This document shows positions 3,625 to 51,907 of a DNA stretch of 64,000 nucleotides, one piece after another. The stretch is from Candidatus Proelusimicrobium volucris. Its GTDB lineage: Bacteria; Elusimicrobiota; Elusimicrobia; Elusimicrobiales; Elusimicrobiaceae. The stretch covers positions 1-64,000 of the forward strand of contig CALUXD010000002.1 of assembly GCA_944324665.1 (NCBI GenBank), in the 5' to 3' direction. The notes beneath the pieces are model-generated. The model was not told where the DNA came from. It was given only the letters and a program-made list of their open reading frames with translations, and made no database searches. Both the position numbers and the translations under genes were made by a program. Within the stretch, counting starts at the first letter, position 1. Each line of letters starts with the position of its first letter.

Positions 3625-5844
3625 ATGGAAGAAACGCAGGGGATATCCGCCTCACCAAGAGTAATAGCGTTTACCGGCCCGAAAGAGGGTGTAGGTAAGA
3701 CGACGCTTGTATTAAATTTGGCCATAGCCTGGGCGGAAATGCAGAAGAGGCCGGTACTTATTGTACCTTTGGACCCTTTGGCCAGGCAGGAACACGGCTT
3801 TTATTTGGGGATAAGGAAACCTGTTACTGTGGCGGACCTCGTGCGTGCGTTAGGATCGGGCGCCATAGCGATAGCTGGCGGCCTTTTAAGAGGCAAGGTT
3901 TCAATGACTCAAGTGGGGGTCGGTGTTCTGCCTTTGGGTTCTACAAGGCAGGAAGTATCCTTAATATCTCCTAAGATATTGCTTCCGATGCTTTCAAGGC
4001 TGCAGCAGACTTTTGACATATTTCTTGATGTCGATTCCAGTTTTCCTATGGAATCGTTCGCTTTTGATATAGCCGATAAGATTTTTTGGGTTACGAATTG
4101 TACCCGTTCTCATTTGAATACGGCGGTATCGATGTTTACGGATTTTAAGGAGATGCATTTCCCTATTGACCGTATCGACATAATTTGCAATCAATACAAT
4201 TTGCCCGGAGCGATAGACCACGAAGAAGTAAACCAATTTTTTATAAAACTCGGGCGTGAGCCGATAGTATATCTTACCTGGGAGGAAAGCGTTTTTGAAT
4301 CCTCCAACAAGAGGGAGATAGAGATTTTGGTCAACCGCAGTTCTCTTTGGGTCCAGGAAGGTTTAAAGCCTATTTTGAAGGTGATAGAAGATACTCCTAC
4401 GATAGAGAAGAACTGGTCTACGGTAGTGCCCGACAGTGAATTTGTTTCGGCGGCAAAGAATATATGGGAAGCGGCGACGGTGTTGACCGGCAATGCGAAA
4501 GGGCCCAACCATTTTGACGCAGGCGATACGGAACTGTCCTATTGGGACTCTTTGAAGCAGCAAGTACATAAAGACGTTATTAAGACATTGGAAGTGGAAC
4601 GTATAGTTATCAGCGAGGAAGGCTCTCAGAACGAACAAACCAGGAAACGTGTTTCCGTAATTATAGACGAAGTTTTGCGAAAGAAAGCGAACGTACAGCT
4701 TTCCCGCGACCAAAAGATAAGGTTTATTAACGAATTATTGGACGAAATTTTGGGATTGGGGCCTTTAGAGGCTTTGATGAGGGATCCGTCCGTCACGGAA
4801 ATCATGGTAAACGCTTACGACAAGATTTTTATCGAGCAGAAAGGTAAGCTGACGCTTACGCGTTATAAATTCCGCAACAATGACCAAGTGGTGCAAGTAA
4901 TAAAGAGGATAGTGGCGCCGCTGGGCAGGCGTATAGACGAATCGGTACCGTTGGTGGACGCTAGATTGAAAGACGGTTCCCGTGTAAACGCGATTATAGC
5001 GCCTTTGGCGGTTTCCGGTCCTTCATTGACGATAAGGCGCTTCTCCCAGAAGCCGTTCGGGCCGGAAGATTATTATCGTTTCGGTACGATTGACAGGGAT
5101 ACGATGTACTTTTTGGAGAGCTGTGTTAAACTCAGAAAGAACATTATTATATGCGGCGGTACCGGTACCGGTAAAACCACGTTTTTAAACGCATTATCAA
5201 GTTACATTCCTGAGAATGAACGTATAGTAACGGTGGAAGATACCGCGGAGTTGAGACTCCAGCAGGAACACTGGGTTTCCTTGGAAAGCAGGCCGGCGAA
5301 CATCGAGGGCAAAGGCGAGATAACGATTAAGGACCTTGTAAAGAACTGTCTTCGTATGAGGCCGGACCGCATAGTAGTCGGTGAGTGCCGCGGCTCGGAA
5401 GCTTTGGACATGTTGCAAGCGATGAACACCGGTCACGAGGGTTCTTTGGCCACTATTCACGCAAACACGCCGCGCGACGGACTTACGCGTCTTGAGGCTA
5501 TGTGCATGATGGCAAGCGCGGACTTGCCGATATGGGCTATCAGGGAGATGATTTCCTCTGCCGTAAACTTGATAGTACAGCTTTCCAGGTTCTCCGACGG
5601 AAGCAGAAAGGTTACATACGTAACTGAGATATGCGGGCAGAAAGACGGAGTGATACAGAGCAAGGATTTATTCCGCTATGTGCAGACGGGCGTCAATAAA
5701 GAGGGCAAGGTCGAAGGCACCTTTGCGCCTACGGGCGATTTGCCTACATTCTTCCCTGAGTTTAAGGCAAAGGGTATAGATGTCCCCAAAGAAACGTTTG
5801 ATAGGAAAGAGCCGACGGCAAAAACGGAAGAGGCCGCGGCATAG
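3625..5844 (+). CDS. TadZ-TadA fusion: MinD-like localiser joined to the pilus assembly ATPase
   Basis: This 739-aa cytoplasmic protein joins two normally separate Tad proteins. Residues about 10-260 are MinD/ParA-like (TadZ/CpaE) with a deviant Walker [11 protein letters not shown] (Lys20, Lys25). Residues about 310-700 are CpaF/TadA, a secretion ATPase with Walker [10 protein letters not shown] (Lys517), a '[10 protein letters not shown]' Asp box, Walker B '[12 protein letters not shown]' and a His box '[12 protein letters not shown]'. The acidic tail is Ala/Glu-rich. It powers pilus extension and presumably carries its own positioning domain. The ATG at 3625 is 4 bases after the secretin stop. 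No frame break or internal stop is seen, so the fusion is in one open frame. Confidence 0.93.
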
Positions 5845-17714: not shown

Positions 17715-17743
17715 TTGACAAATAATAGGTTTGTTTGTAGACT
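17715..17743 (+). promoter_or_regulatory. Sigma70-type promoter, copy 1
   Basis: TTGACA at 17715-17720 and TAGACT at 17738-17743 are separated by 17 bases. The same -35, spacing and -10 recur at 19251-19279 ahead of the paralogous gene. Transcription would start near 17750, just before the structured leader. Confidence 0.8.
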
Positions 17744-17749
17744 TATTAT

Positions 17750-17864
17750 AAGTACATTCGTGCTGAAGATAGCTCCGTGTTTGAGGGCTCAGCAATAAAA
17801 AGCTGAGTCGGTCATCAGGGGCAAGATTTTTTGTATAAGAATTTAAATTTTAGGGGATAGGAAT
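17750..17864 (+). ncRNA. Structured leader RNA motif, copy 1 (candidate cis-regulatory RNA)
   Basis: The leader opens with a small hairpin, GTAC/GTGC (17752-17763). Invariant block TAGCTCCGTGTTTGAGG follows (17770-17786), then a variable 7-bp stem GCTCAGC/GCTGAGT (17787-17808), then invariant block TCGGTCATCAGGGGC (17808-17822). GCTCC (17772-17776) can pair with GGGGC (17818-17822), and TGA with TCA inside it, so the blocks close a bulged stem. The start codon is 42 bases downstream. The second copy at 19287 keeps the blocks and all stems with different stem sequence. I do not recognise a known riboswitch class. Structure is well supported; ligand and function are unknown. Confidence 0.72.
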
Positions 17865-19229
17865 ATGGCGGTAGTATTAAAAAGCAAAAACGGCGGAATG
17901 AAGAAAAGCCCCGTAAGCGCATGGCTGGGCTACGGTGCGGTAGCGGTATTTGGTTTGGCAATAATATCTACGGCTTTTATGGGCGGTGGAAATGCGCCGG
18001 ATCCGATGGATTCGGCATATAGCTATTCCGACTTTAAAGATTTGGCGGACATGCCTTTTTCCAATGAGGAAGCAGAAGCGCAGTTGTTATCGAGCGTAAG
18101 ATACGGCGATATAGCCAAGAACGATTTGATAAACGCATTATTTACGGAAGAAGACAAAGCAGAACGCCAAGCTGAAGACGCTGCAAACGGAGTGCCGGAG
18201 CCTCCAGACGAGGAGTATGCAGAAGCGGCAAAGGCCAAGGAAAATGTAAAAAGCGCGAAGGAGCGATATCAAAGAAGTAAGCAAGCGGCTAGGAATGCGG
18301 TAGCGCAGAGAACATCAAAAGGCTCTTTAAACGCGTCCAGCGGGGTTAGGGCGACGGGCGGAAGCAGCGGTGTAAGTGCGACTATTTGGCGTGCGGACGA
18401 TAAAAACAATAAATCTTCCGGTTCATCGGCGAATGTAAACAGCAGGGGCGGCGGCACTTTAAGCAACCAGCTGGCGCAGGAGTTAAAGAAAGGCGGACGC
18501 GGGGGCGGTTTTATGTCTGCTTATGAAAAGAGCCGCGCAGCAGCTAATGCGCAGGATTTAGAAGCGGCGCATGCGTTGGCGGCGGACGCGTTTCAAAATT
18601 CAGGCGATTTGGAAGGCGATTTGAAAGGAGATTTGGAGGATATGGCCGCGGAGATGGATTTGGATAAAGCGATTGGTGCGATAGATAAGGAAAAAGGTTT
18701 GACTAATACCTTAGACGAGAAACTTTCCGAAGCTAAAGACAATGCAGAAAAGAAGAGCAAGAAAGATTATAAATGTGACGGCGCTATGAGAAACGGGAAA
18801 ATAGATGGCGGCTGTATGGCTAACGAGTTTATGAATGCACTTATGGATATTGGTAAGCAAGCTTTAACATCATTGCTTAACAGAGGTAAGGGCGAATTAA
18901 CTCCGGAGGAAGCGGCAAATAAAAACTCTAAAATAGAAGCAATTGACCAAGAAATAGAGGGTTTGGAGGCTAAAGGCGAATTAAGCGCGAGTGATAAAGC
19001 GCGGTTGCAGCAATTAAAACAAGATAGTGCGTATCTCAATACTCCGGGGGTTGCAGATTTTAGTGAAGATTATATGAAGAGCAGGACAGAGAGATATAGT
19101 GAGGCGTTTCGACGTTATCAAATGGAAGACATGACAAAGAAAATGCAAGCGGAAAATAGAAAATTACAGCAAGAGCGGTTTGATAATTGGGTTAAAGATA
19201 GTCTGTTACGAGACAGTAAAAATCTTTGA
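17865..19229 (+). CDS. Region-2 protein 1: signal-anchored, low-complexity, paralog of protein 2
   Basis: This 454-aa protein has a TM helix at about 22-42, then a conserved module (about 50-125, 'DLADMPFSNEEAEAQLL' to 'NGVPEPPDEEY') shared with the protein at 19406. A charged coiled region comes next, then a Gly/Ser-rich stretch (about 145-215), an Ala-rich helical part, and a C-terminal half of long Lys/Glu/Gln helices likely to form coiled coil. Two Cys flank about residues 304-315. I know no family for it. Topology suggests an inner-membrane anchor with a large periplasmic part. AGGGGATA precedes the ATG. Confidence 0.8.
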   Translation: MAVVLKSKNGGMKKSPVSAWLGYGAVAVFGLAIISTAFMGGGNAPDPMDSAYSYSDFKDLADMPFSNEEAEAQLLSSVRYGDIAKNDLINALFTEEDKAERQAEDAANGVPEPPDEEYAEAAKAKENVKSAKERYQRSKQAARNAVAQRTSKGSLNASSGVRATGGSSGVSATIWRADDKNNKSSGSSANVNSRGGGTLSNQLAQELKKGGRGGGFMSAYEKSRAAANAQDLEAAHALAADAFQNSGDLEGDLKGDLEDMAAEMDLDKAIGAIDKEKGLTNTLDEKLSEAKDNAEKKSKKDYKCDGAMRNGKIDGGCMANEFMNALMDIGKQALTSLLNRGKGELTPEEAANKNSKIEAIDQEIEGLEAKGELSASDKARLQQLKQDSAYLNTPGVADFSEDYMKSRTERYSEAFRRYQMEDMTKKMQAENRKLQQERFDNWVKDSLLRDSKNL

Positions 19230-19250
19230 ATATAAAGTATATTTTTACCA

Positions 19251-19279
19251 TTGACAATTAAGGGGTTTATTGGTAGACT
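19251..19279 (+). promoter_or_regulatory. Sigma70-type promoter, copy 2
   Basis: TTGACA at 19251-19256 and TAGACT at 19274-19279 have a 17-base spacer, identical in -35, -10 and spacing to the promoter at 17715. It gives the downstream genes their own start inside the cluster. Confidence 0.8.
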
Positions 19280-19286
19280 TAAAGTA

Positions 19287-19405
19287 GGCACTTGGTGTGC
19301 CAATAAATTAGCTCCGTGTTTGAGGATATTCCGGCGGTAATGGGGTATCGGTCATCAGGGGCCGATTTTATTGCATATCAGATTTGTATTTTAAGAGGAT
19401 AAAGT
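19287..19405 (+). ncRNA. Structured leader RNA motif, copy 2
   Basis: The order matches copy 1: hairpin GGCAC/GTGCC (19287-19301), block TAGCTCCGTGTTTGAGG (19309-19325), 7-bp stem ATATTCC/GGGGTAT (19326-19348) and block TCGGTCATCAGGGGC (19348-19362). The ATG lies 43 bases later. GCTCC (19311-19315) pairs with GGGGC (19358-19362). The inner stem has a wholly different sequence from copy 1 yet still pairs over 7 bp, which indicates selection on RNA structure rather than leftover duplication. Confidence 0.72.
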
Positions 19406-20401
19406 ATGTCGATAATTATTAGGGGCGCCGGCGGCAAGAGAGGCGGAGAAAAGAACCAAATATATACATGGGCTGCGTGTATAATGGTGTTGGTTTTTGC
19501 AATCTCTATAGGAGTTGCCGTAAAAGGTGCGAAGAAACAAACTCCCTCAGAGGCGGCATACCGCAAACAGGCATTTGATTTGGGCAATATGCCTTTTGAC
19601 GACGACAGTGCCGAGGCGTATTTGTTGGCATCCAATAAATATGACGATATAGCGCGAAAAGATTATATAAACGGCTTATTTACTAAGAAACAGAAAGAGG
19701 AGCGGCAAGCCGATGACGCTTTGAACGGAGTACCGGTCGCTCCAGATGACGAATATAAAGCGGCGCAAGATGAAAAAGAGGCAAAGAAGATAAGAGAGAG
19801 TATTGCTGAGAAAAAGAGGAAAGAAGCTAGACCAAAAAATGCACGCCCGATTACTCCTAAAGGCTCTTTAAGTGGTGGTTCGATGGTAAGTGTTTCTGGC
19901 GGCGGTGGCGGAATGAGAGGGACGGTTTCCAATGTGGGAAGTAGTTCCGCCAATGTCCAATCTGGCTCGAAGATGACCCAAGCGCAAGCCGCTTTAATAA
20001 ATCAAGTAAAAGGCGGAAAGGCATTGGGCTTCCAGCATGCGGTGATGGCAAGTGCTCAAGCTGCTAACAGCAGAGATTTAGAGTCGGCGGCAGGCGGCTC
20101 GGTGGATGCTTTTCAAAAAGGGGCAATGGATGTTGGCCAAGACTTTTTAGAAAGCGATTTGGAAAAAGATTCTGGCGCTTTAAACGTTGATGAAGAAGAT
20201 TTAAGAGATAAGCTGGAACGTGCTGGCAACAGTGGAGAGCTAGAAGGGTTGGACTCTAAATTAGAAGATTTAAAAAAAGAGAAAGAGGAAGAAGAAGCAG
20301 AGACTTGTGAGCAAAATCCTCTCCAAGGTGCGTGTCTTATAAACTGGGGTATGGATTTGGCTAAAATGGCATTGGGTGCATGGTTAGGCGGAATATTTTA
20401 A
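19406..20401 (+). CDS. Region-2 protein 2: paralog of protein 1
   Basis: The 331-aa protein has a TM helix at about 19-40 and then the shared module (about 52-118, 'DLGNMPFDDDSAEAYLL' to 'NGVPVAPDDEY'), clearly homologous to protein 1. A charged helix, the segment KGSLSGG and a Gly/Ser/Val-rich stretch ending in SSANVQSG follow, also shared. The C-terminal third is acidic coiled coil with two Cys and a final hydrophobic segment. It lacks the last 120 residues of protein 1. The two genes arose by duplication together with promoter and leader. Function unknown. Confidence 0.8.
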   Translation: MSIIIRGAGGKRGGEKNQIYTWAACIMVLVFAISIGVAVKGAKKQTPSEAAYRKQAFDLGNMPFDDDSAEAYLLASNKYDDIARKDYINGLFTKKQKEERQADDALNGVPVAPDDEYKAAQDEKEAKKIRESIAEKKRKEARPKNARPITPKGSLSGGSMVSVSGGGGGMRGTVSNVGSSSANVQSGSKMTQAQAALINQVKGGKALGFQHAVMASAQAANSRDLESAAGGSVDAFQKGAMDVGQDFLESDLEKDSGALNVDEEDLRDKLERAGNSGELEGLDSKLEDLKKEKEEEEAETCEQNPLQGACLINWGMDLAKMALGAWLGGIF

Positions 20402-20430: not shown

Positions 20431-21939
20431 ATGAAAAATATATTAAACAGAATAGGAGCGGTGTCAAAACCCGTAATATTCGGTGCGGCTTTGGGCGTTG
20501 CCACCGTTGCGGTTGGTATTGGAGTAGCTACCAACTTGATGAGTGACGGGCCTAAAGGCGTATCCGGGCGCGTATTGGGGCAATACAGTGCGGATACCGC
20601 TTCGGTGGGCTCAGGCGGTGGATATGGAGCTTTTTCCAAAGAAGCCTTGGAACAGCAAATGGCTGCAGCTCAGGCCGCGCGTGAAGGCGGAACTGCGTTA
20701 GATTATTTGGGAGCAGCCGGCAGAAATAGATTTGCTTATGGTGACAATGCAAGCTCTTATGGAAGCGGAGTAGTGGATCCTATGGCTATGAACAATGCCG
20801 CTTATGAAGGCGGGGAGAACCTAGCCTCAGTTGGTGGTATGCCATCTGACATAGGTGCGGCAATGAATCAATTTAATGCTACTGCGGCGGCCGTAAGTGC
20901 TAAAGCTGGCCAAGGCGAAGGCGCAGCTGGGGAAGAGGGCGGAACGGAAAAAGGTGCTTTAGAAAAAGCGGAAGCGTCTGCTACCCAGCTTAACAAACTT
21001 AACAGAAGCAATATGTTTGGCGGAAGTTCAGCTTCCGGAGTTTCTTCAGGCGGCGGCGCTCGCAATATGGGCGGTATTATGGGGGCTATGTCTTCCGATA
21101 AAGCTGCTCAGAAAGCTGTTCCTTCTGTAAATATGGGCAATATTCCGGAAAGTAATATAAGCGGCATTGCAAGCGCAAAACACGGGCGTCTTGGCGCCAT
21201 GGGTGGCAGCAATTCAAGAGGCGGAACAAGCGGTAATGGCGGCAGCGGACAGGCTTACTTTACCAGCACAATGGGAGAGTTGGTTTCCGCGCAGAAATAT
21301 TCGGCTTTGGGAAAAGGCACGGTATATAGTGATGCGGAAAAAGGCTTTGTAGAAGCATCAGCGGCTTTTGACGGCAGCGGAGACGTTGAGGAGGGTACGC
21401 AAATAACCGGCAGTACTCCTATGATAGAAAAAGCAGCTGCTTTGGATAGAGAAGCTAGTACTATTAACAAGAACGGAAAGGGTACGACTGTCGGAGGTAT
21501 TGATAATTTTACGCAGGCTAGTGATAAATATCGTGACGCTGTCTCTAAGATATGGACTACAATTATTACAATGATAGGTATGACTATCGGCGGTATTATA
21601 GCAGTTATGGCAGCGCATAAGGCTACGGCATGGCTAGGGGGCGTTGGCGGCTATATAGTTGCAGCTATTATGACCGCAGTGATTATTGGATTCGGAATGG
21701 GAATGATGGGCCTGTATGTAAATAGAATAAACAATTTGGGATATGGCTTATCTGCGGGTCCTTGGAACCATATGAGATATTGGTTGCCGATAGCTTTCGG
21801 GGCATTGCCATGGTTGGGCCTGTTGACTTCTACGGGTACTAAGATGTCAGCTGTCTTGGGAACTTTGGGCGGCAAATTAATGGCAGGCGTAGGGGCAATG
21901 GCTCTTTTAAAAGGAGCTTCAGGTTATTTAGGTTTTTAA
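20431..21939 (+). CDS. Region-2 protein 3: Gly/Ala/Ser-rich multi-TM protein
   Basis: A 502-aa protein with an N-terminal TM helix (about 12-33), then about 340 residues of Gly/Ala/Ser-rich sequence. The C-terminal part has four to five hydrophobic segments (about 375-500) resembling a membrane domain. Residues about 245-335 share a module with protein 5: 'KHGRLGAMGGSNSRGG', then a 'YFTS..' segment and 'DGSGDVEEGTQITG'. ATAGGAG gives the ribosome site for the ATG at 20431. An earlier in-frame ATG at 20380 would overlap the previous gene. I cannot name a family. A pore or anchor role is conceivable from the topology. Confidence 0.75.
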   Translation: MKNILNRIGAVSKPVIFGAALGVATVAVGIGVATNLMSDGPKGVSGRVLGQYSADTASVGSGGGYGAFSKEALEQQMAAAQAAREGGTALDYLGAAGRNRFAYGDNASSYGSGVVDPMAMNNAAYEGGENLASVGGMPSDIGAAMNQFNATAAAVSAKAGQGEGAAGEEGGTEKGALEKAEASATQLNKLNRSNMFGGSSASGVSSGGGARNMGGIMGAMSSDKAAQKAVPSVNMGNIPESNISGIASAKHGRLGAMGGSNSRGGTSGNGGSGQAYFTSTMGELVSAQKYSALGKGTVYSDAEKGFVEASAAFDGSGDVEEGTQITGSTPMIEKAAALDREASTINKNGKGTTVGGIDNFTQASDKYRDAVSKIWTTIITMIGMTIGGIIAVMAAHKATAWLGGVGGYIVAAIMTAVIIGFGMGMMGLYVNRINNLGYGLSAGPWNHMRYWLPIAFGALPWLGLLTSTGTKMSAVLGTLGGKLMAGVGAMALLKGASGYLGF

Positions 21940-21970
21940 ATATTATGTAAGAATACAGTAACAGGTGTTT

Positions 21971-22480
21971 ATGTATAATAAAAAAGATTATTTAACTATA
22001 TTGGCGGCATTTGTTGGCAGCTGGATATTAACATCGATTGTAAGCGGATATATAGATGTTAAAACTAAAAAGGAAATTGAAACCATAAAAGCCAACTATG
22101 AAGCAGAGCTAAGAGAGCAAGGCCTGCTGCCTAAAGAGGAACCCCGTCGTATTAAGACAGAGATATATATACCGGTAGACAGAACGGGGCAGGCCAATAG
22201 GGCAGACAGTACGGCAATGTTCTTAAAGTCGGCGCAAGATACTTTCGGCTATAAGGAAGAGGATCGACTTGAAACGGTTGATTACGGATCCCAAGTTGAT
22301 GAGTATCAGCAGAGAGTTAATGCTATTAAGAGGGCTGAAGCTCAGAAATTGCAGCAACAGAGGGCTCAGCAAGAGGCGTTAAACAGAAAGATTAACAGGC
22401 CTTCTCAGCCCAAAAGCGGAGTTTCAGGCGGGCAGAGCGGAAGTACGAGGGTCAACAAATTGAGGACTTCCAGCCTATAA
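21971..22480 (+). CDS. Region-2 protein 4: small signal-anchored coiled-coil protein
   Basis: The 169-aa protein has one TM helix (about 6-25), then a Lys/Glu helix, a Pro-containing linker, and a Gln/Arg/Ala-rich coiled coil (about 110-145). Its tail is Ser/Gly-rich and basic. No known motif is seen. The ATG at 21971 is preferred to a GTG at 21965. The anchor-plus-rod layout would suit a linker between inner membrane and periplasmic parts of the complex made by its neighbours. Confidence 0.65.
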   Translation: MYNKKDYLTILAAFVGSWILTSIVSGYIDVKTKKEIETIKANYEAELREQGLLPKEEPRRIKTEIYIPVDRTGQANRADSTAMFLKSAQDTFGYKEEDRLETVDYGSQVDEYQQRVNAIKRAEAQKLQQQRAQQEALNRKINRPSQPKSGVSGGQSGSTRVNKLRTSSL

Positions 22481-22539
22481 GGTTCTCAAGGCGATAAAAT
22501 CTAGACGCCGCGATAAAGAAAAGGGAAAAGGGTAATGGT

Positions 22540-24072
22540 ATGAAAAACAAAAACATAGTTAGAGACAGAAACAAAAAGACTCCTTTTTATAAGAATAAGA
22601 GGGGCATATTGGCGGTAATTTTACTGCTGTTACTGTTCTTTCTTACGGCTATAACTATGCCTATGTCGGAAATACCTTTGCTTGGACGTATGGGAATAAT
22701 GTTTGGGCTTACCGACGAATCCATGCGGGCTTTGACATTATCTGATTTCGCGGCGTATACTTTTGGTATAGAGGGCGGAGGAAGGCTGGCTTCCGTCCGG
22801 AACGGACAATATTCCGTTTACGAAAGCAGCGGTGGGCTTTCTCCTTTTACTTTGCAAAGCTCCAACCGTCTTTTAGATGCGCAAGAAGCGTATAGAAAGG
22901 AATTTGAGAAAATGGGCCGTTACAGTGCGATAGCGGGATCGGCTTCTGGTTTAAATTTGGAGGATCCGGAAGGGATCGCGTATCAGATGGGAATGAATGC
23001 TGTAAGCCCGTATATAGATGGGACAACGAACGCCGCAGCGGCGGACGAATACGGCCAGCCATTTGTGAAGCCTTTTGATGAAATGGCTTTAGATCAGGTA
23101 TATGCTGCAAGTTCTAGCGGTAAAAGAGATGCGAAGGGTAATATCATTTTATCAGGCAGCGATAAAACAAAAATTTTAAAGCCGTCTAATTTGGGGGATA
23201 TAAAATCTGCCAGAAGTGATGAGAACAGCATGTATTTCCAATCTTTAGATAGCCAAGCCAAGAAACTGCACGGCGGTCGTTTGGGAGCCTTTGGCGGTAT
23301 AAACGCAATGACAAGCAGAATAAGAACCAGTATTTCTTCGGGACGGCAAATGGGAGCTTTTGGTCATTCCGGCAGAGAGATGGGCCGTGTATATTATTTG
23401 AGTGCCACCGCAAAAGGGCAGAAGTATAACGATGTGGCAAAAAATGTTGTAGAGGCGGCCTGGGATGGCGGCGAGGTTGAGGAAGAGGATTTACTGGCCG
23501 TAGGGGAGGAAACGGAAAAAGCTGTTGACTCTTTGGAGCCTCCTTCAACGATAATAGATAAGGCGACGAAAGCCCGCGGAGCATGCGCTGCGGCGCGCGC
23601 CGCTTTTGATCAGGCTTTAAACGATACGGGCAAGGCATACAGAAATTTAGAAGCAAAACTGATACAGGCAGGTAAAGATTCTGGCTCCAACACGGGTGTT
23701 CCGGGATCATGCAGCGCAAATTGGCCGAAAGGCTCTGCGAAATCAAAAGCTAAGCGGAAGGAATGGAATGCCTATATAGACGCGATGAAGACTACGTGTA
23801 ATGAATTGCGCAATATCGGCGGTGATTATGCCGGTCAATGCGGGCTTAATTATGAGACTACTGTATCTTGCAGCAAACTTGACGAGGCAAAAGCCAAAGG
23901 GAAGACTTGGGGCGGCAATGTTTGGACTTTATTGACAAGATTTAAGAAGTGTAAGAATAATTCAATAGACAATAACGGCAACAGTTTAAAAATAGATAAA
24001 GTCAACACGATACTTACCGATGTCCGCAAAGGTGCGGGTTTAGACGGTACGGTAGCGGATAATTTCTTTTAA
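22540..24072 (+). CDS. Region-2 protein 5: signal-anchored protein sharing a module with protein 3
   Basis: This 510-aa protein has a TM helix at about 23-42 after a basic N-terminus. Next comes a long region with 'SDFAAYTFGIEGGGRLASV', then the module shared with protein 3 (about 243-330, 'LHGGRLGAFGG' ... 'YYLSATAKGQKYNDVAKNVV' ... 'DGGEVEEEDLL'). The C-terminal domain carries seven Cys (about 345-480), probably disulphide-bonded in the periplasm. AAAAGGGTAATGGT precedes the ATG. No family is recognised. It ends 145 bases before the next gene, which has its own promoter. Confidence 0.75.
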   Translation: MKNKNIVRDRNKKTPFYKNKRGILAVILLLLLFFLTAITMPMSEIPLLGRMGIMFGLTDESMRALTLSDFAAYTFGIEGGGRLASVRNGQYSVYESSGGLSPFTLQSSNRLLDAQEAYRKEFEKMGRYSAIAGSASGLNLEDPEGIAYQMGMNAVSPYIDGTTNAAAADEYGQPFVKPFDEMALDQVYAASSSGKRDAKGNIILSGSDKTKILKPSNLGDIKSARSDENSMYFQSLDSQAKKLHGGRLGAFGGINAMTSRIRTSISSGRQMGAFGHSGREMGRVYYLSATAKGQKYNDVAKNVVEAAWDGGEVEEEDLLAVGEETEKAVDSLEPPSTIIDKATKARGACAAARAAFDQALNDTGKAYRNLEAKLIQAGKDSGSNTGVPGSCSANWPKGSAKSKAKRKEWNAYIDAMKTTCNELRNIGGDYAGQCGLNYETTVSCSKLDEAKAKGKTWGGNVWTLLTRFKKCKNNSIDNNGNSLKIDKVNTILTDVRKGAGLDGTVADNFF

Positions 24073-24217: not shown

Positions 24218-27200
24218 ATGCCAAATAAGGATAGCTTTACGTTTAGCGATAAGTTAAAGAAGAGTAAATCTCTTCCATTATCCAAACGTATTCCCTCCCG
24301 TGTAGGAGGAGACGGCAAAGCCAAGCGGACTCTAATTCAAAGAGCCCAACGGGATTTGCCATTTATAATAGTGGCTGCCGCAGCCTTATTGCTGCTGCCA
24401 TTATTAAGCCGCAACAGCGGCACTGACGCGACCGGGTTTGAAGGTTCGGGCTATGACGATTTTGTAGGTGAATCCCTGTACGACTATCCGTCTTCGGGTG
24501 ATGGTGAAATCGTTCCCAGCACGGGCTATAGAGATCCTATGGACTACATTATAACCAATCGCAGCGGAATGGATACTCCCAGCTTAAGCGATAGCTATGA
24601 TTCCGAGGATACTTCTTCTTATATATCGCATGCGCAGTCATCTTATGAGGAAGAGAAGCCTCAAAGAGAGATATATAAGAATGTAGCCAAGCCGTCTATC
24701 CGTAATGCCGTTCAGCGCAAAGCTACGGCCATAGGTGCTTTTAGAAACCGCGCGATGAGTTTTGGCAACAGCAGTTCAGGATTAACTCGCAACTTGGCGA
24801 TTGGCGGGGCTCCTACGACTACGGGTACAGCGGCAGCTAGAGTTGGCGTTAGGCCAGTGGCTTTACAGCCGCTTAGCTCGGCAGGCAAAGGCAGAGTACT
24901 TACCGGGGAAGGTTTATATGCTGAGGCGGCTCGTTCCTTAGGAGCTTTAAACCAAGGTTCAGCCAAGCAGGCATTGTTTGAAGCTCAGCTTCGCGATGTA
25001 GACGGTGCTCCGTTAGGTGCGGCCGGAGATCCGAGGAGAGCTGCTGCCAGGATAGGTTCTCAAGGCGGGGTTCCCGATCATAAATTCGGATACACCAATG
25101 AGCGTCCTTGGTGGTGGGATATGATGAAAGAGCGTTCCCAAAAGATGTGGGAGCTTTGGAACTACAACTGGCAGAAGGCTTTGTCCGATTCGTTGATAAA
25201 AGTATCTACGAACTTGGCGATGTGTCTTTTGACGGGTTCCGAAGACGGTTCGGTAAAGAACTTTTTGGGTATAAAAGGCGGTTCTAAAGATGTTTGCTGT
25301 TTGGTAGACGGTATGGAACTTTGCGCGGGCGACATTGGCGATTATACGTCCTCTACAAGCGGCTCAGGCGACAGCAAAGAAACGACGAATAATTCTTTCT
25401 CTTCGATACAGGCTTTCTGCGATTCCCACGGAGCTAAGACTTATGTTTCCGAATCAGGAGCCAAAAACGCTTTACAGGCGAGGCTTGAATGTATGGGCTT
25501 GAAAGCCGGCAAGTTGGCTTGGGCTTCCGGGACGAACTATGCGGGTTCTTGCGCGGACGTGAATAAGACTCCTATGGTTTATAAAGCCACCGCTACGCGT
25601 AAAGCCGACGGCAAAGTGCGTGACAGAAAGAATGAGAAGATTGTCGTATACGTAAAGGCCAAACCCAGAGAGAATATTGATACTAAAACAGCTAACAATG
25701 AGTTTGTTATAGCCTTGGAAAAGACTAATGAATTTGCTTTGAGTGCCGAAGAATTAAAGGCCATTAACACAAACTGCGAAATTACCAGAGTTGGGTCTTT
25801 CGTATCGAAGAATACAAAGAGGAAAATATCCAATAAGGTCGGGCAGTATAATGACGACAAGGAATCTATAACGGAGGAAAATGCTGAGGAAAATTCGGAT
25901 AAATTAAAGAGCGGCAGATATACAAAACAAGAAGAAAAGAATTCTAGCGAAGGTGGAGAACTTAAGATCAGCGAGTATATAATAGGCAAGGTGAATGATC
26001 AGTACAATTATTGTATCAGCGAGAATGCCGTCAAGCCTGCGGAATTTATTGATGAAGATGATATCATGGAAGATATCAAGGTTAAAACCGAAATCAATGA
26101 AGTCTGCCCGATATGGTATTCCGACGGATATTTGGATAATCAGCAAACAAACAGCATATCCTGTGTTTCGGAAGATCCCGTAGAAATTGATGTGTTGGCG
26201 GAATCCAACTTCTCTGTAGATGTTGTTAATCCCAAAGATAATATCTTTGCGATATTTGTGGAGTATGTACAAACAGGATCCGGCAAAGACGGCAAAATAG
26301 GGCCTGTAGTAAAAGAAATGAAAAATGCCTCTGGCATGGTAAAGACTAAAATCGGCGACAAAGTAAGATATACAGTGCCGGGTTTCAGGCCGGGTAAATC
26401 CTTATCCAGCAGCACGGAAGATTCCAGCGGCAAAGCGAGCCCTGGCAACGGAAAGGTGTTTTGGCTGATGACCAATAAAGAAACGCCCACAGTGGATGTC
26501 GGCCATATCTTTGAGGGCAGGTTTCTTGATGATATAAAAGCCGAAGATCTTATCGGCCCTACTGCGGGATATAAACAGGCTCAGTGTTTCTACAAATGGG
26601 GTTGTAACGGAGAAGAGTGTCCGCCCGCACCGGTTACCGGTACCTTCTGTAGAGAAGACGGTAAACTCTATAAAGCTGTGCAGGTTGAAGGATATTTCTT
26701 TAGAGCCACCGACAAAACCCAGAATGTGATGGGGGAGGATCTTAAGAATTATTCTAGGAGCGATAAAGAATGTGGAGAGGATACTAATAAGTTCATCTCT
26801 AAACAACCTCAATGCTCTAAACTGTGCAAATATACGGATACGGAGATGTATGGTATATATCCGTATAGCAAAGATACTATATTGAAGAAAGAAAGTCTGC
26901 AAAATGTTGCCAAAGATGTATTGGATAACTGTGAGGAATGTTATCCTAAAGATGAAGGCGAACAAAGAGAAGTAGAACAAACGGGAGATTGTGTTTTTAA
27001 TGTATCCTCGACATTCTGCACTTATCAGTTTACGAGATTTGGTTCTGGCAGCAGTTCCAATTGTAAAGATATGGATGAGGATGGCATTAAGAAAGTTCAG
27101 TCTCAGACTGCTGATTTACTCCAATGCTTAAAGGGAAATGAGATGAAGATCGGCTTGTATGGGTGGACTTCCGCTTCCGGAGGCGAGAAAAATAAGGGAC

Positions 27201-27925
27201 TTTCCCAAGCTAGGGCTCTTAAGGTTGCGCAGATCGTATATGAATATATACAGCAGAAAGATCCGAACCTCTATATAGAGTTTGCTTTCCCCTCTGACTT
27301 TACGGGTATTCCCGGATTTAACAGGAATAATAAGAGCGGATATACTTCGGAGTCTGATTATATATCCAATGTGAAACAAAATTATCCTGTTGATCAGGGT
27401 GAAAATCCTCATAAAGCGAAAATAGAGGAAGCCAGAAAGACCTATATTGCCAAAAGAGAAGCGACTGACGCTGCTAGACGTGCATTGAATAATTATAGCA
27501 GTGATACTGTGAATGGTGCGGCTATACTCAGCAAACTTGACAACAATGAGGACGCTAAAATTGAGGAAGAAATACGCGTCTTGGAAAAGAAACTCAATGA
27601 GGCTGGCTTTGATGAAAGTATAGAAATTCAAGTGCAGATTAACGAAAAGAATAGACTCCTTGAGGAAACTAGAGCCAAAGTACAGTTGTCGCCTGAAGAG
27701 GAGGCTTTGCCGGAATATCAAGCTTATAGGCAAGCCAAACAGGAAGAGCTTGATTATAAGAATAACGAATTGGCGGAAGCACGCAGATTATCAAGAAGAT
27801 TGGTAATTTACGTAAGCGGACAAGGTGCTTCTGCTGGTTCTAAAGCTGATGAACATTGGGCTAAATGTATTGCGGGTAAAGTGATAAACGATAACGACTA
27901 TACACCTCAACCTTGCAGACAATAG
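24218..27925 (+). CDS. Region-2 protein 6: giant signal-anchored protein with split OmpA-like C-terminus
   Basis: The 1235-aa protein has a TM helix at about 46-64 after a basic N-terminus, then a Ser/Gly/Tyr-rich stretch and an Ala-rich part (about 150-290). A Trp cluster sits near 302-322 and a Cys-rich central region at about 355-930. From about 965 it resembles an OmpA/MotB peptidoglycan-binding domain: 'GLYGWTSASGGEKNKGLSQA' continuing RALKVAQIV, and, after about 155 residues of mostly coiled coil, the final strand 'SRRLVIYVSG' near 1192. If correct, the domain is split by a helical insertion. It may tether the assembly to the cell wall. The OmpA match is by eye only. Confidence 0.75.
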   Translation: MPNKDSFTFSDKLKKSKSLPLSKRIPSRVGGDGKAKRTLIQRAQRDLPFIIVAAAALLLLPLLSRNSGTDATGFEGSGYDDFVGESLYDYPSSGDGEIVPSTGYRDPMDYIITNRSGMDTPSLSDSYDSEDTSSYISHAQSSYEEEKPQREIYKNVAKPSIRNAVQRKATAIGAFRNRAMSFGNSSSGLTRNLAIGGAPTTTGTAAARVGVRPVALQPLSSAGKGRVLTGEGLYAEAARSLGALNQGSAKQALFEAQLRDVDGAPLGAAGDPRRAAARIGSQGGVPDHKFGYTNERPWWWDMMKERSQKMWELWNYNWQKALSDSLIKVSTNLAMCLLTGSEDGSVKNFLGIKGGSKDVCCLVDGMELCAGDIGDYTSSTSGSGDSKETTNNSFSSIQAFCDSHGAKTYVSESGAKNALQARLECMGLKAGKLAWASGTNYAGSCADVNKTPMVYKATATRKADGKVRDRKNEKIVVYVKAKPRENIDTKTANNEFVIALEKTNEFALSAEELKAINTNCEITRVGSFVSKNTKRKISNKVGQYNDDKESITEENAEENSDKLKSGRYTKQEEKNSSEGGELKISEYIIGKVNDQYNYCISENAVKPAEFIDEDDIMEDIKVKTEINEVCPIWYSDGYLDNQQTNSISCVSEDPVEIDVLAESNFSVDVVNPKDNIFAIFVEYVQTGSGKDGKIGPVVKEMKNASGMVKTKIGDKVRYTVPGFRPGKSLSSSTEDSSGKASPGNGKVFWLMTNKETPTVDVGHIFEGRFLDDIKAEDLIGPTAGYKQAQCFYKWGCNGEECPPAPVTGTFCREDGKLYKAVQVEGYFFRATDKTQNVMGEDLKNYSRSDKECGEDTNKFISKQPQCSKLCKYTDTEMYGIYPYSKDTILKKESLQNVAKDVLDNCEECYPKDEGEQREVEQTGDCVFNVSSTFCTYQFTRFGSGSSSNCKDMDEDGIKKVQSQTADLLQCLKGNEMKIGLYGWTSASGGEKNKGLSQARALKVAQIVYEYIQQKDPNLYIEFAFPSDFTGIPGFNRNNKSGYTSESDYISNVKQNYPVDQGENPHKAKIEEARKTYIAKREATDAARRALNNYSSDTVNGAAILSKLDNNEDAKIEEEIRVLEKKLNEAGFDESIEIQVQINEKNRLLEETRAKVQLSPEEEALPEYQAYRQAKQEELDYKNNELAEARRLSRRLVIYVSGQGASAGSKADEHWAKCIAGKVINDNDYTPQPCRQ

Positions 27926-27944
27926 CGTTAAGTAAAAATCTTAA

Positions 27945-27976
27945 AATCCCCCGGTTTAAACCGGGGGATTTTTATT
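27945..27976 (+). terminator. Terminator at the end of the novel cluster
   Basis: AATCCCCCGG/CCGGGGGATT forms a 10-bp stem with loop TTTAAA, followed by TTTTTATTT. It closes the region begun at 17.7 kb. Confidence 0.93.
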
Positions 27977-51557: not shown

Positions 51558-51582
51558 ATAAAAAGCGCCGCGAAAGCGGCGC
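51558..51582 (-). terminator. rnpB: Terminator of rnpB
   Basis: On the minus strand GCGCCG/CGGCGC forms a 6-bp stem with loop CTTTCG and is followed by TTTTTATT. It sits directly after the P1 helix of the RNase P RNA. Confidence 0.85.
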
Positions 51583-51900
51583 GCTGAACTATACCCCGGA
51601 TTCTGTACGCTTGCGCGCGCAGACCATTTATCTATGCGGCCTACTCTGCCTTAACATACGGGCCGTATATCGGCATATTTGGCCTTGCTCCGAGCGGGGT
51701 TTACCTTGCCGCAGGCGTTGCCGTCTGCGCGGTAAGCTCTTGCCTTACCATTTCACCCTTACCCTTGCGGGCGGTATCTTTTCTGTTGCACTTTCCGTCG
51801 AACGGGGATATGGCCCCGCCCTCCCGCGCTTTCGCGCGGCGCCCTGCCCTGGGAGTCCGGAAGTTCCTCCGCTTTTACGCGGCGGTCTGCCGTTCAGTAC
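51583..51900 (-). ncRNA. rnpB: RNase P RNA, bacterial type A-like
   Basis: Read on the minus strand, the RNA has P1 pairing CUGAAC (51892-51897) with GUUCAG (51584-51589). A CR-I-like block GAGGAACUUCCGGACUCC, CAACAGAAAAGAUACCGCC, a GGUAAGGGUGAAAUGGU segment, AGAGCUUACCGC and the 3' block ACAGAAUCCGGGGUAU follow. Together these are the core of bacterial RNase P RNA, which trims tRNA 5' ends. Length is about 318 nt. P4 differs from the usual sequence but compensates (see findings). TATAAAAT lies near the start, at about 51904-51912, inside the end of the RNase H-like gene. Confidence 0.93.
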
Positions 51901-51907
51901 TTATATT

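What the first reader, a model, noticed from the sequence alone, without database searches (positions are those of the whole stretch)
17750..19405. Duplicated structured leader RNA with covarying stem before a paralogous gene pair
Two leaders of similar layout share a promoter (TTGACA-N17-TAGACT), two invariant blocks (17 and 15 nt) and 42-43 bases to the ATG. The stem between the blocks is 7 bp in both copies yet shares almost no sequence: GCTCAGC/GCTGAGT against ATATTCC/GGGGTAT. The outer GCTCC-GGGGC pairing and the 5' hairpin are also kept. Stem change with pairing kept is direct evidence of selection on RNA structure. I do not recognise the motif among riboswitches I know, so this may be a new cis-regulatory RNA, perhaps sensing a small molecule or being bound by a protein.
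Basis: partly seen in the sequence, partly recalled or inferred. Interest (0 to 1): 0.8.

Follow-up and report, generated by a model that had tools for sequence, protein, structure and literature searches.

The report
New leader RNA before pilus-cluster genes
Two neighbouring genes in an Elusimicrobium-type gut bacterium each start with a small folded RNA that turns out to be a previously undescribed RNA family, kept for the same surface-apparatus genes in nearly every member of its bacterial family, so it is almost certainly a real gene-control element whose partner is still unknown.

Summary
The two leaders (core 17772-17822 and 19311-19362) belong to an RNA family of which I found 89 copies in 81 of 90 genomes of the same bacterial family (Elusimicrobiaceae). 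There were none above chance in the other 251 genomes of the phylum, and no Rfam match. The core is a 17-bp hairpin with fixed unpaired positions (a G facing GG in 88/88, a single-base bulge, a second small loop). 96.7% of pair positions are pairable. In a phylogeny-aware test only five column pairs covary significantly, all in the proposed structure. G.U outnumbers A.C 99 to 6, so it folds as plus-strand RNA. Copies follow a near-consensus promoter and are followed 2-4 nt later by a locked U-tract, then a Shine-Dalgarno and start codon. All but three with a readable downstream gene precede the same membrane-anchored protein, here next to a Tad pilus locus. The three exceptions, all in genus Elusimicrobium, precede the OmpA-like giant protein that is downstream in the same operon here. 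Most likely it is a cis-regulatory hairpin read by a protein or by RNA polymerase while the U-tract is transcribed. A metabolite riboswitch is less likely. The partner is unknown.

The parts
17715..17743 (+). Promoter of leader 1, TTGACA-N17-TAGACT
   Evidence: same promoter layout with 17-nt spacer in 86 of 87 scorable copies
17751..17764 (+). 5' hairpin of leader 1 (accessory, not in all relatives)
   Evidence: absent where the 5' leader is only 9-17 nt
17772..17822 (+). Core hairpin, copy 1
   Evidence: CM hit 17768-17835, 70.1 bits, E 2.3e-16
17827..17832 (+). U-tract 4 nt after the core stem, copy 1
17865..19229 (+). ORF 454 aa, membrane-anchored protein of unknown function, downstream of copy 1
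19251..19279 (+). Promoter of leader 2, TTGACA-N17-TAGACT
19287..19301 (+). 5' hairpin of leader 2 (accessory)
19311..19362 (+). Core hairpin, copy 2
   Evidence: CM hit 19307-19375, 68.8 bits, E 5.4e-16
19366..19372 (+). U-rich tract (UUUUAUU) after core, copy 2
19406..20401 (+). ORF 331 aa, paralogue of 17865-19229, downstream of copy 2
20431..24072 (+). Three further ORFs of the same apparent operon
24218..27925 (+). 1235-aa protein with weak OmpA-like match; its homologue in Elusimicrobium has its own copy of the RNA
27943..27972 (+). Strong terminator-like hairpin ending the apparent operon

Best explanation
Shown: the leaders carry a conserved, covarying RNA hairpin followed at a locked 2-4 nt by a U-tract. 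It is a lineage-specific cis element tied to one gene set (an envelope operon lying next to a Tad locus in the window). Inferred: the bulged helix with its invariant G/GG internal loop is recognised while it is being transcribed, either by a dedicated RNA-binding protein or by RNA polymerase itself. This governs whether polymerase pauses or stops at the U-tract or continues into the long downstream operon, so output of the surface apparatus is set in the leader.
For: 89 copies with 96.7% paired cells and 250 double-changed cells against 71 in shuffles. A tree-aware null gives 5 significant pairs, all in the structure. G.U 99 against A.C 6 and invariant G/GG loop 88/88. U-tract position is locked (T 92-100% at +5 to +7, only 5% at +1 and +2), while the distances from transcription start (9-29) and to ATG (13-131) drift. 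The Shine-Dalgarno does not pair with the core (median probability 0.0). In all three Elusimicrobium genomes, where the two gene groups lie apart, both carry the motif, which fits a shared trans-acting input. Motif and gene co-occur: 81 of 83 gene-bearing family genomes, and one of the two misses lacks upstream sequence.
Against: No transcript data. No partner protein identified. The U-tract could serve RNA stability or Hfq-like or S1 binding instead of transcription. The motif before both tandem paralogues in the window is also explained by duplication of gene plus leader.
Confidence: 0.45

Rival explanations
1. Leader hairpin acting after transcription: a binding protein controls translation or mRNA decay, or the hairpin protects the 5' end of a highly expressed mRNA.
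For: Near-consensus promoters and 5'-terminal position suit a stability element. A U-rich stretch lies upstream of the Shine-Dalgarno in nearly all copies.
Against: The core does not pair with the Shine-Dalgarno and its distance to ATG varies widely. Plain stabilising hairpins would not need an invariant G/GG loop. CsrA is not detected in nine genomes although the search rings in control genomes.
Confidence: 0.25
2. Metabolite riboswitch: the bulged hairpin is a small aptamer, for example for a nucleotide second messenger.
For: Invariant unpaired bases; GGDEF proteins exist in all genomes tested; control of pilus-type genes would fit.
Against: Single hairpin with small bulges and a variable apical loop; no conserved alternative structure; no Rfam match at E<=5 in the window or E<=1 at the motif in 13 relatives.
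Confidence: 0.15
3. The element is simply an intrinsic terminator acting as a constitutive attenuator.
For: Hairpin followed by a U-tract; the terminator score turns positive in 85/89 if the spacer is ignored.
Against: With the real 2-4 nt purine-rich spacer 0/89 score as terminators, whereas the operon's 3' terminator scores +21. Internal loops and bulges are conserved, which a plain terminator does not need.
Confidence: 0.1
4. A DNA-level inverted repeat (operator) rather than RNA.
For: It lies close to the promoter.
Against: G.U pairs are common and A.C pairs rare on the plus strand (99 against 6). The variable stem covaries without sequence conservation. Always downstream of the promoter and oriented.
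Confidence: 0.02

Closest known systems
HK022 put RNA (phage nascent-RNA antiterminator)
   Same: Leader RNA just downstream of a promoter with important unpaired bases; acts on the polymerase that made it; putL also suppresses a pause at a fixed distance downstream (PMC9378689).
   Different: put has two stem-loops of about 70 nt forming a V and its pause is 21 nt downstream; here there is one conserved hairpin and a U-tract 2-4 nt away. No sequence test against put was made.
BglG/LicT ribonucleic antiterminator (RAT)
   Same: Hairpin with asymmetric internal loops in a leader (general knowledge).
   Different: The CAT RNA-binding domain (PF03123) is not detected in nine genomes searched while the search rings in controls.
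c-di-GMP riboswitches
   Same: Leader RNAs, often upstream of pilus and surface genes (general knowledge).
   Different: No Rfam match to any c-di-GMP family at relaxed thresholds; far simpler fold.
NusG-paralogue systems (RfaH/ops, LoaP)
   Same: Leader element for long operons of surface or secondary-metabolite genes (PMC7593976).
   Different: One NusG-domain protein in 12 of 13 genomes searched and none found in the other; no paralogue.

Membership tests
Any Rfam 15 family | Covariance-model match at or above gathering score | tested here: not met
   no motif-overlapping match, even at E<=5 (window) or E<=1 (13 relatives)
Structured cis-regulatory leader RNA | Covarying helix conserved beyond phylogenetic expectation | tested here: met
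Structured cis-regulatory leader RNA | Fixed place between promoter and coding start, same strand | tested here: met
Structured cis-regulatory leader RNA | Measured effect on expression | not testable with these tools
   no transcript or reporter data
Intrinsic terminator | U-tract directly at the base of a stable hairpin, positive d'Aubenton-Carafa-type score | tested here: not met
   0 of 89 positive; positive only if the spacer is ignored
c-di-GMP-I/II riboswitch | Match to the family's aptamer model | tested here: not met
   (the genome-wide RF01051 search is uninformative because no control rang)
Translational riboswitch by Shine-Dalgarno sequestration | Alternative pairing of aptamer with the Shine-Dalgarno | tested here: not met
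   median pairing probability 0.0, above 0.3 in 2 of 83; thermodynamic prediction only
BglG/LicT RAT | CAT-domain regulator in the genome | tested here: not met
CsrA leader | CsrA in the genome | tested here: not met
LoaP/RfaH leader | NusG paralogue in the genome | tested here: not met
   single NusG match in 12 genomes, none in G087
HK022 put-like antiterminator | RNA binds the polymerase beta' zinc-binding domain and suppresses termination | not testable with these tools
   needs in vitro transcription

The most novel reading that the evidence does not exclude
A chromosomal, factor-independent nascent-RNA element of the put type: the leader hairpin binds the RNA polymerase that made it, at the adjacent U-tract, and drives it through the 10-kb envelope operon. 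This would be a cellular RNA-only antiterminator in a deep-branching phylum.
Probability: 0.12. Interest if true: 0.85.

Novelty: new member of a known kind. Interest (0 to 1): 0.58.

Why it matters
I found no described RNA regulation in Elusimicrobiota in the held literature. This is a well-supported RNA family that is near-universal in the family Elusimicrobiaceae and tied to one surface-apparatus gene set. It gives a ready covariance model and a sharp test of how leader hairpins with a fixed U-tract act. If the partner is polymerase itself or a new RNA-binding protein, it would add a mechanism.

Tried and rejected
Rfam scan of the window and relatives: nothing. Viral contigs: no exact-pattern match. 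Extra pair between columns 13 and 51 of the core: pairable in most copies but not supported by covariation. A lower stem pairing the U-tract with the 5' flank: native flanks pair better than swapped ones (-4.21 against -3.55 kcal/mol, 0/200), but phylogeny is not controlled and fold predictions are inconsistent. Competing hairpin in copy 2 (19347-19366): only in some copies. Literature search for a described RNA in this group: none found in the held library; one large catalogue of bacterial RNA candidates is not held.

Full report
Observation. The two leaders are as described: promoter, two invariant blocks, a 7-bp stem unlike in sequence but alike in pairing, closing stem, 42/43 nt to ATG. 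The two genes are paralogues with 37% identity over 283 aa. No other copy was found in the own genome.

Expansion. A pattern search in the order gave four genomes with six copies whose inner stems again differ but pair. Homologues of the first protein then showed, upstream, 29 distinct copies including diverged ones. A covariance model built from these found the motif in 81 of the 90 genomes of the same family, none in the rest of the order at E<=0.01, and only two chance-level matches (E about 0.04) elsewhere in 341 phylum genomes; 89 copies were collected and aligned. The organisms are Elusimicrobiota; G067 and G069 contigs correspond by length to records titled Elusimicrobium sp. and Elusimicrobia bacterium. 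G068, a single contig of 1,643,562 bases, is, from memory of its size, Elusimicrobium minutum; the family name Elusimicrobiaceae rests on these identifications.

Structure. Consensus: [A/G]CUC[C/U] - single bulge - UG - YU - UG[A/G] - G - variable stem and loop - GG - [U/C]C[A/G] - N - CA - [A/G]G[A/G]G[U/C]. On 88 distinct rows, 96.7% of cells pair against 81% in shuffles and 31-52% in slid controls; 250 cells changed on both sides against 71. Because shuffles ignore ancestry, I ran a tree-based null in which each column keeps its number of changes: five pairs reach E<0.05, all within the structure, none outside. The lower stem varies too little to be tested with power (E 0.1-0.4 for its two most variable pairs), though GC/AU exchanges at columns 5-83 and CG/UA at 9-79 keep pairing. 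G.U pairs number 99 and A.C pairs 6, as expected for plus-strand RNA. The G opposite GG is invariant in 88/88. The alignment was fitted to the model, which leans towards the structure; the MAFFT alignment of 29 copies, not so fitted, gives the same result.

Context. The copies sit between a TTGACA-N17-TATACT-type promoter (86 of 87 scorable with a 17-nt spacer) and a Shine-Dalgarno. The distance from expected transcription start (9-29) and to ATG (13-131) drifts, but the U-tract is locked, mostly 2-4 nt after the stem: T in 92-100% at +5 to +7, in 5% at +1 and +2. By an intrinsic-terminator score none of 89 qualifies with that spacer, while the operon's own terminator scores +21.

Genes. Of the copies with a readable downstream gene, all but three precede one protein family (short N-terminal segment, one hydrophobic segment, conserved DLAxMPFxxDEAE motif). 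The three exceptions, all in genus g3 (Elusimicrobium), precede the large protein homologous to window ORF 24218-27925. So where the gene set lies in two places, both carry the RNA. A profile of the protein family finds it in 83 of 90 family genomes. All 81 motif genomes are among them; of the two without motif, one contig ends at the ATG and one (G081) lacks it. Genera g4 and g5 lack both. Four weak protein matches outside the family (E 2e-4 to 1e-3) are not counted. Upstream in the window is a Tad pilus locus: TadE, RcpC/CpaB, a fused ParA-T2SSE ATPase, two T2SSF proteins, then two-component regulators and a TadE-like gene.

Mechanism. What is shown is an RNA-level, lineage-specific cis element coupled to a U-tract and to one gene set. 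What is inferred is recognition of the bulged helix during transcription. Against a translational switch, the core does not pair with the Shine-Dalgarno. Against named known regulators: CsrA and CAT-domain proteins were not detected, and there was at most one NusG-domain protein per genome. GGDEF proteins are present, so c-di-GMP cannot be excluded. The nearest mechanistic relative I know is HK022 put (PMC9378689), but membership was not testable.

Verdict. A real RNA family, undescribed as far as Rfam 15 and the held literature show, of a known general kind (leader RNA), with mechanism open.

Noticed in passing
L062, L067, L111 and other leaders of genus g2, just before the Shine-Dalgarno: A start-stop ATGTAA lies between the U-tract and the Shine-Dalgarno in many g2 leaders; it could be a minimal upstream ORF or chance in AT-rich sequence.
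   Followed up: no
window 19347-19366: In copy 2 an alternative hairpin ATCGG/CCGAT followed by TTTATT competes with the core; variants exist in some g1 copies, not in copy 1 or in g2.
   Followed up: partly
window 3625-5844: In the Tad pilus locus, a 739-aa ORF fuses a ParA-like and a T2SSE ATPase domain.
   Followed up: no
L151 (G081:C20:1-1400): The one genome that has the downstream gene with upstream sequence but no RNA motif and no matching promoter.
   Followed up: partly
L072:5916-5976: The copy before the 367-aa gene in the E. minutum-sized genome is degenerate (lacks the UG of the core; 40.6 bits) compared with the copy before the OmpA-like gene (61.5 bits).
   Followed up: no
window 51576-51901: Bacterial RNase P class A RNA on the minus strand, ordinary.
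   Followed up: no
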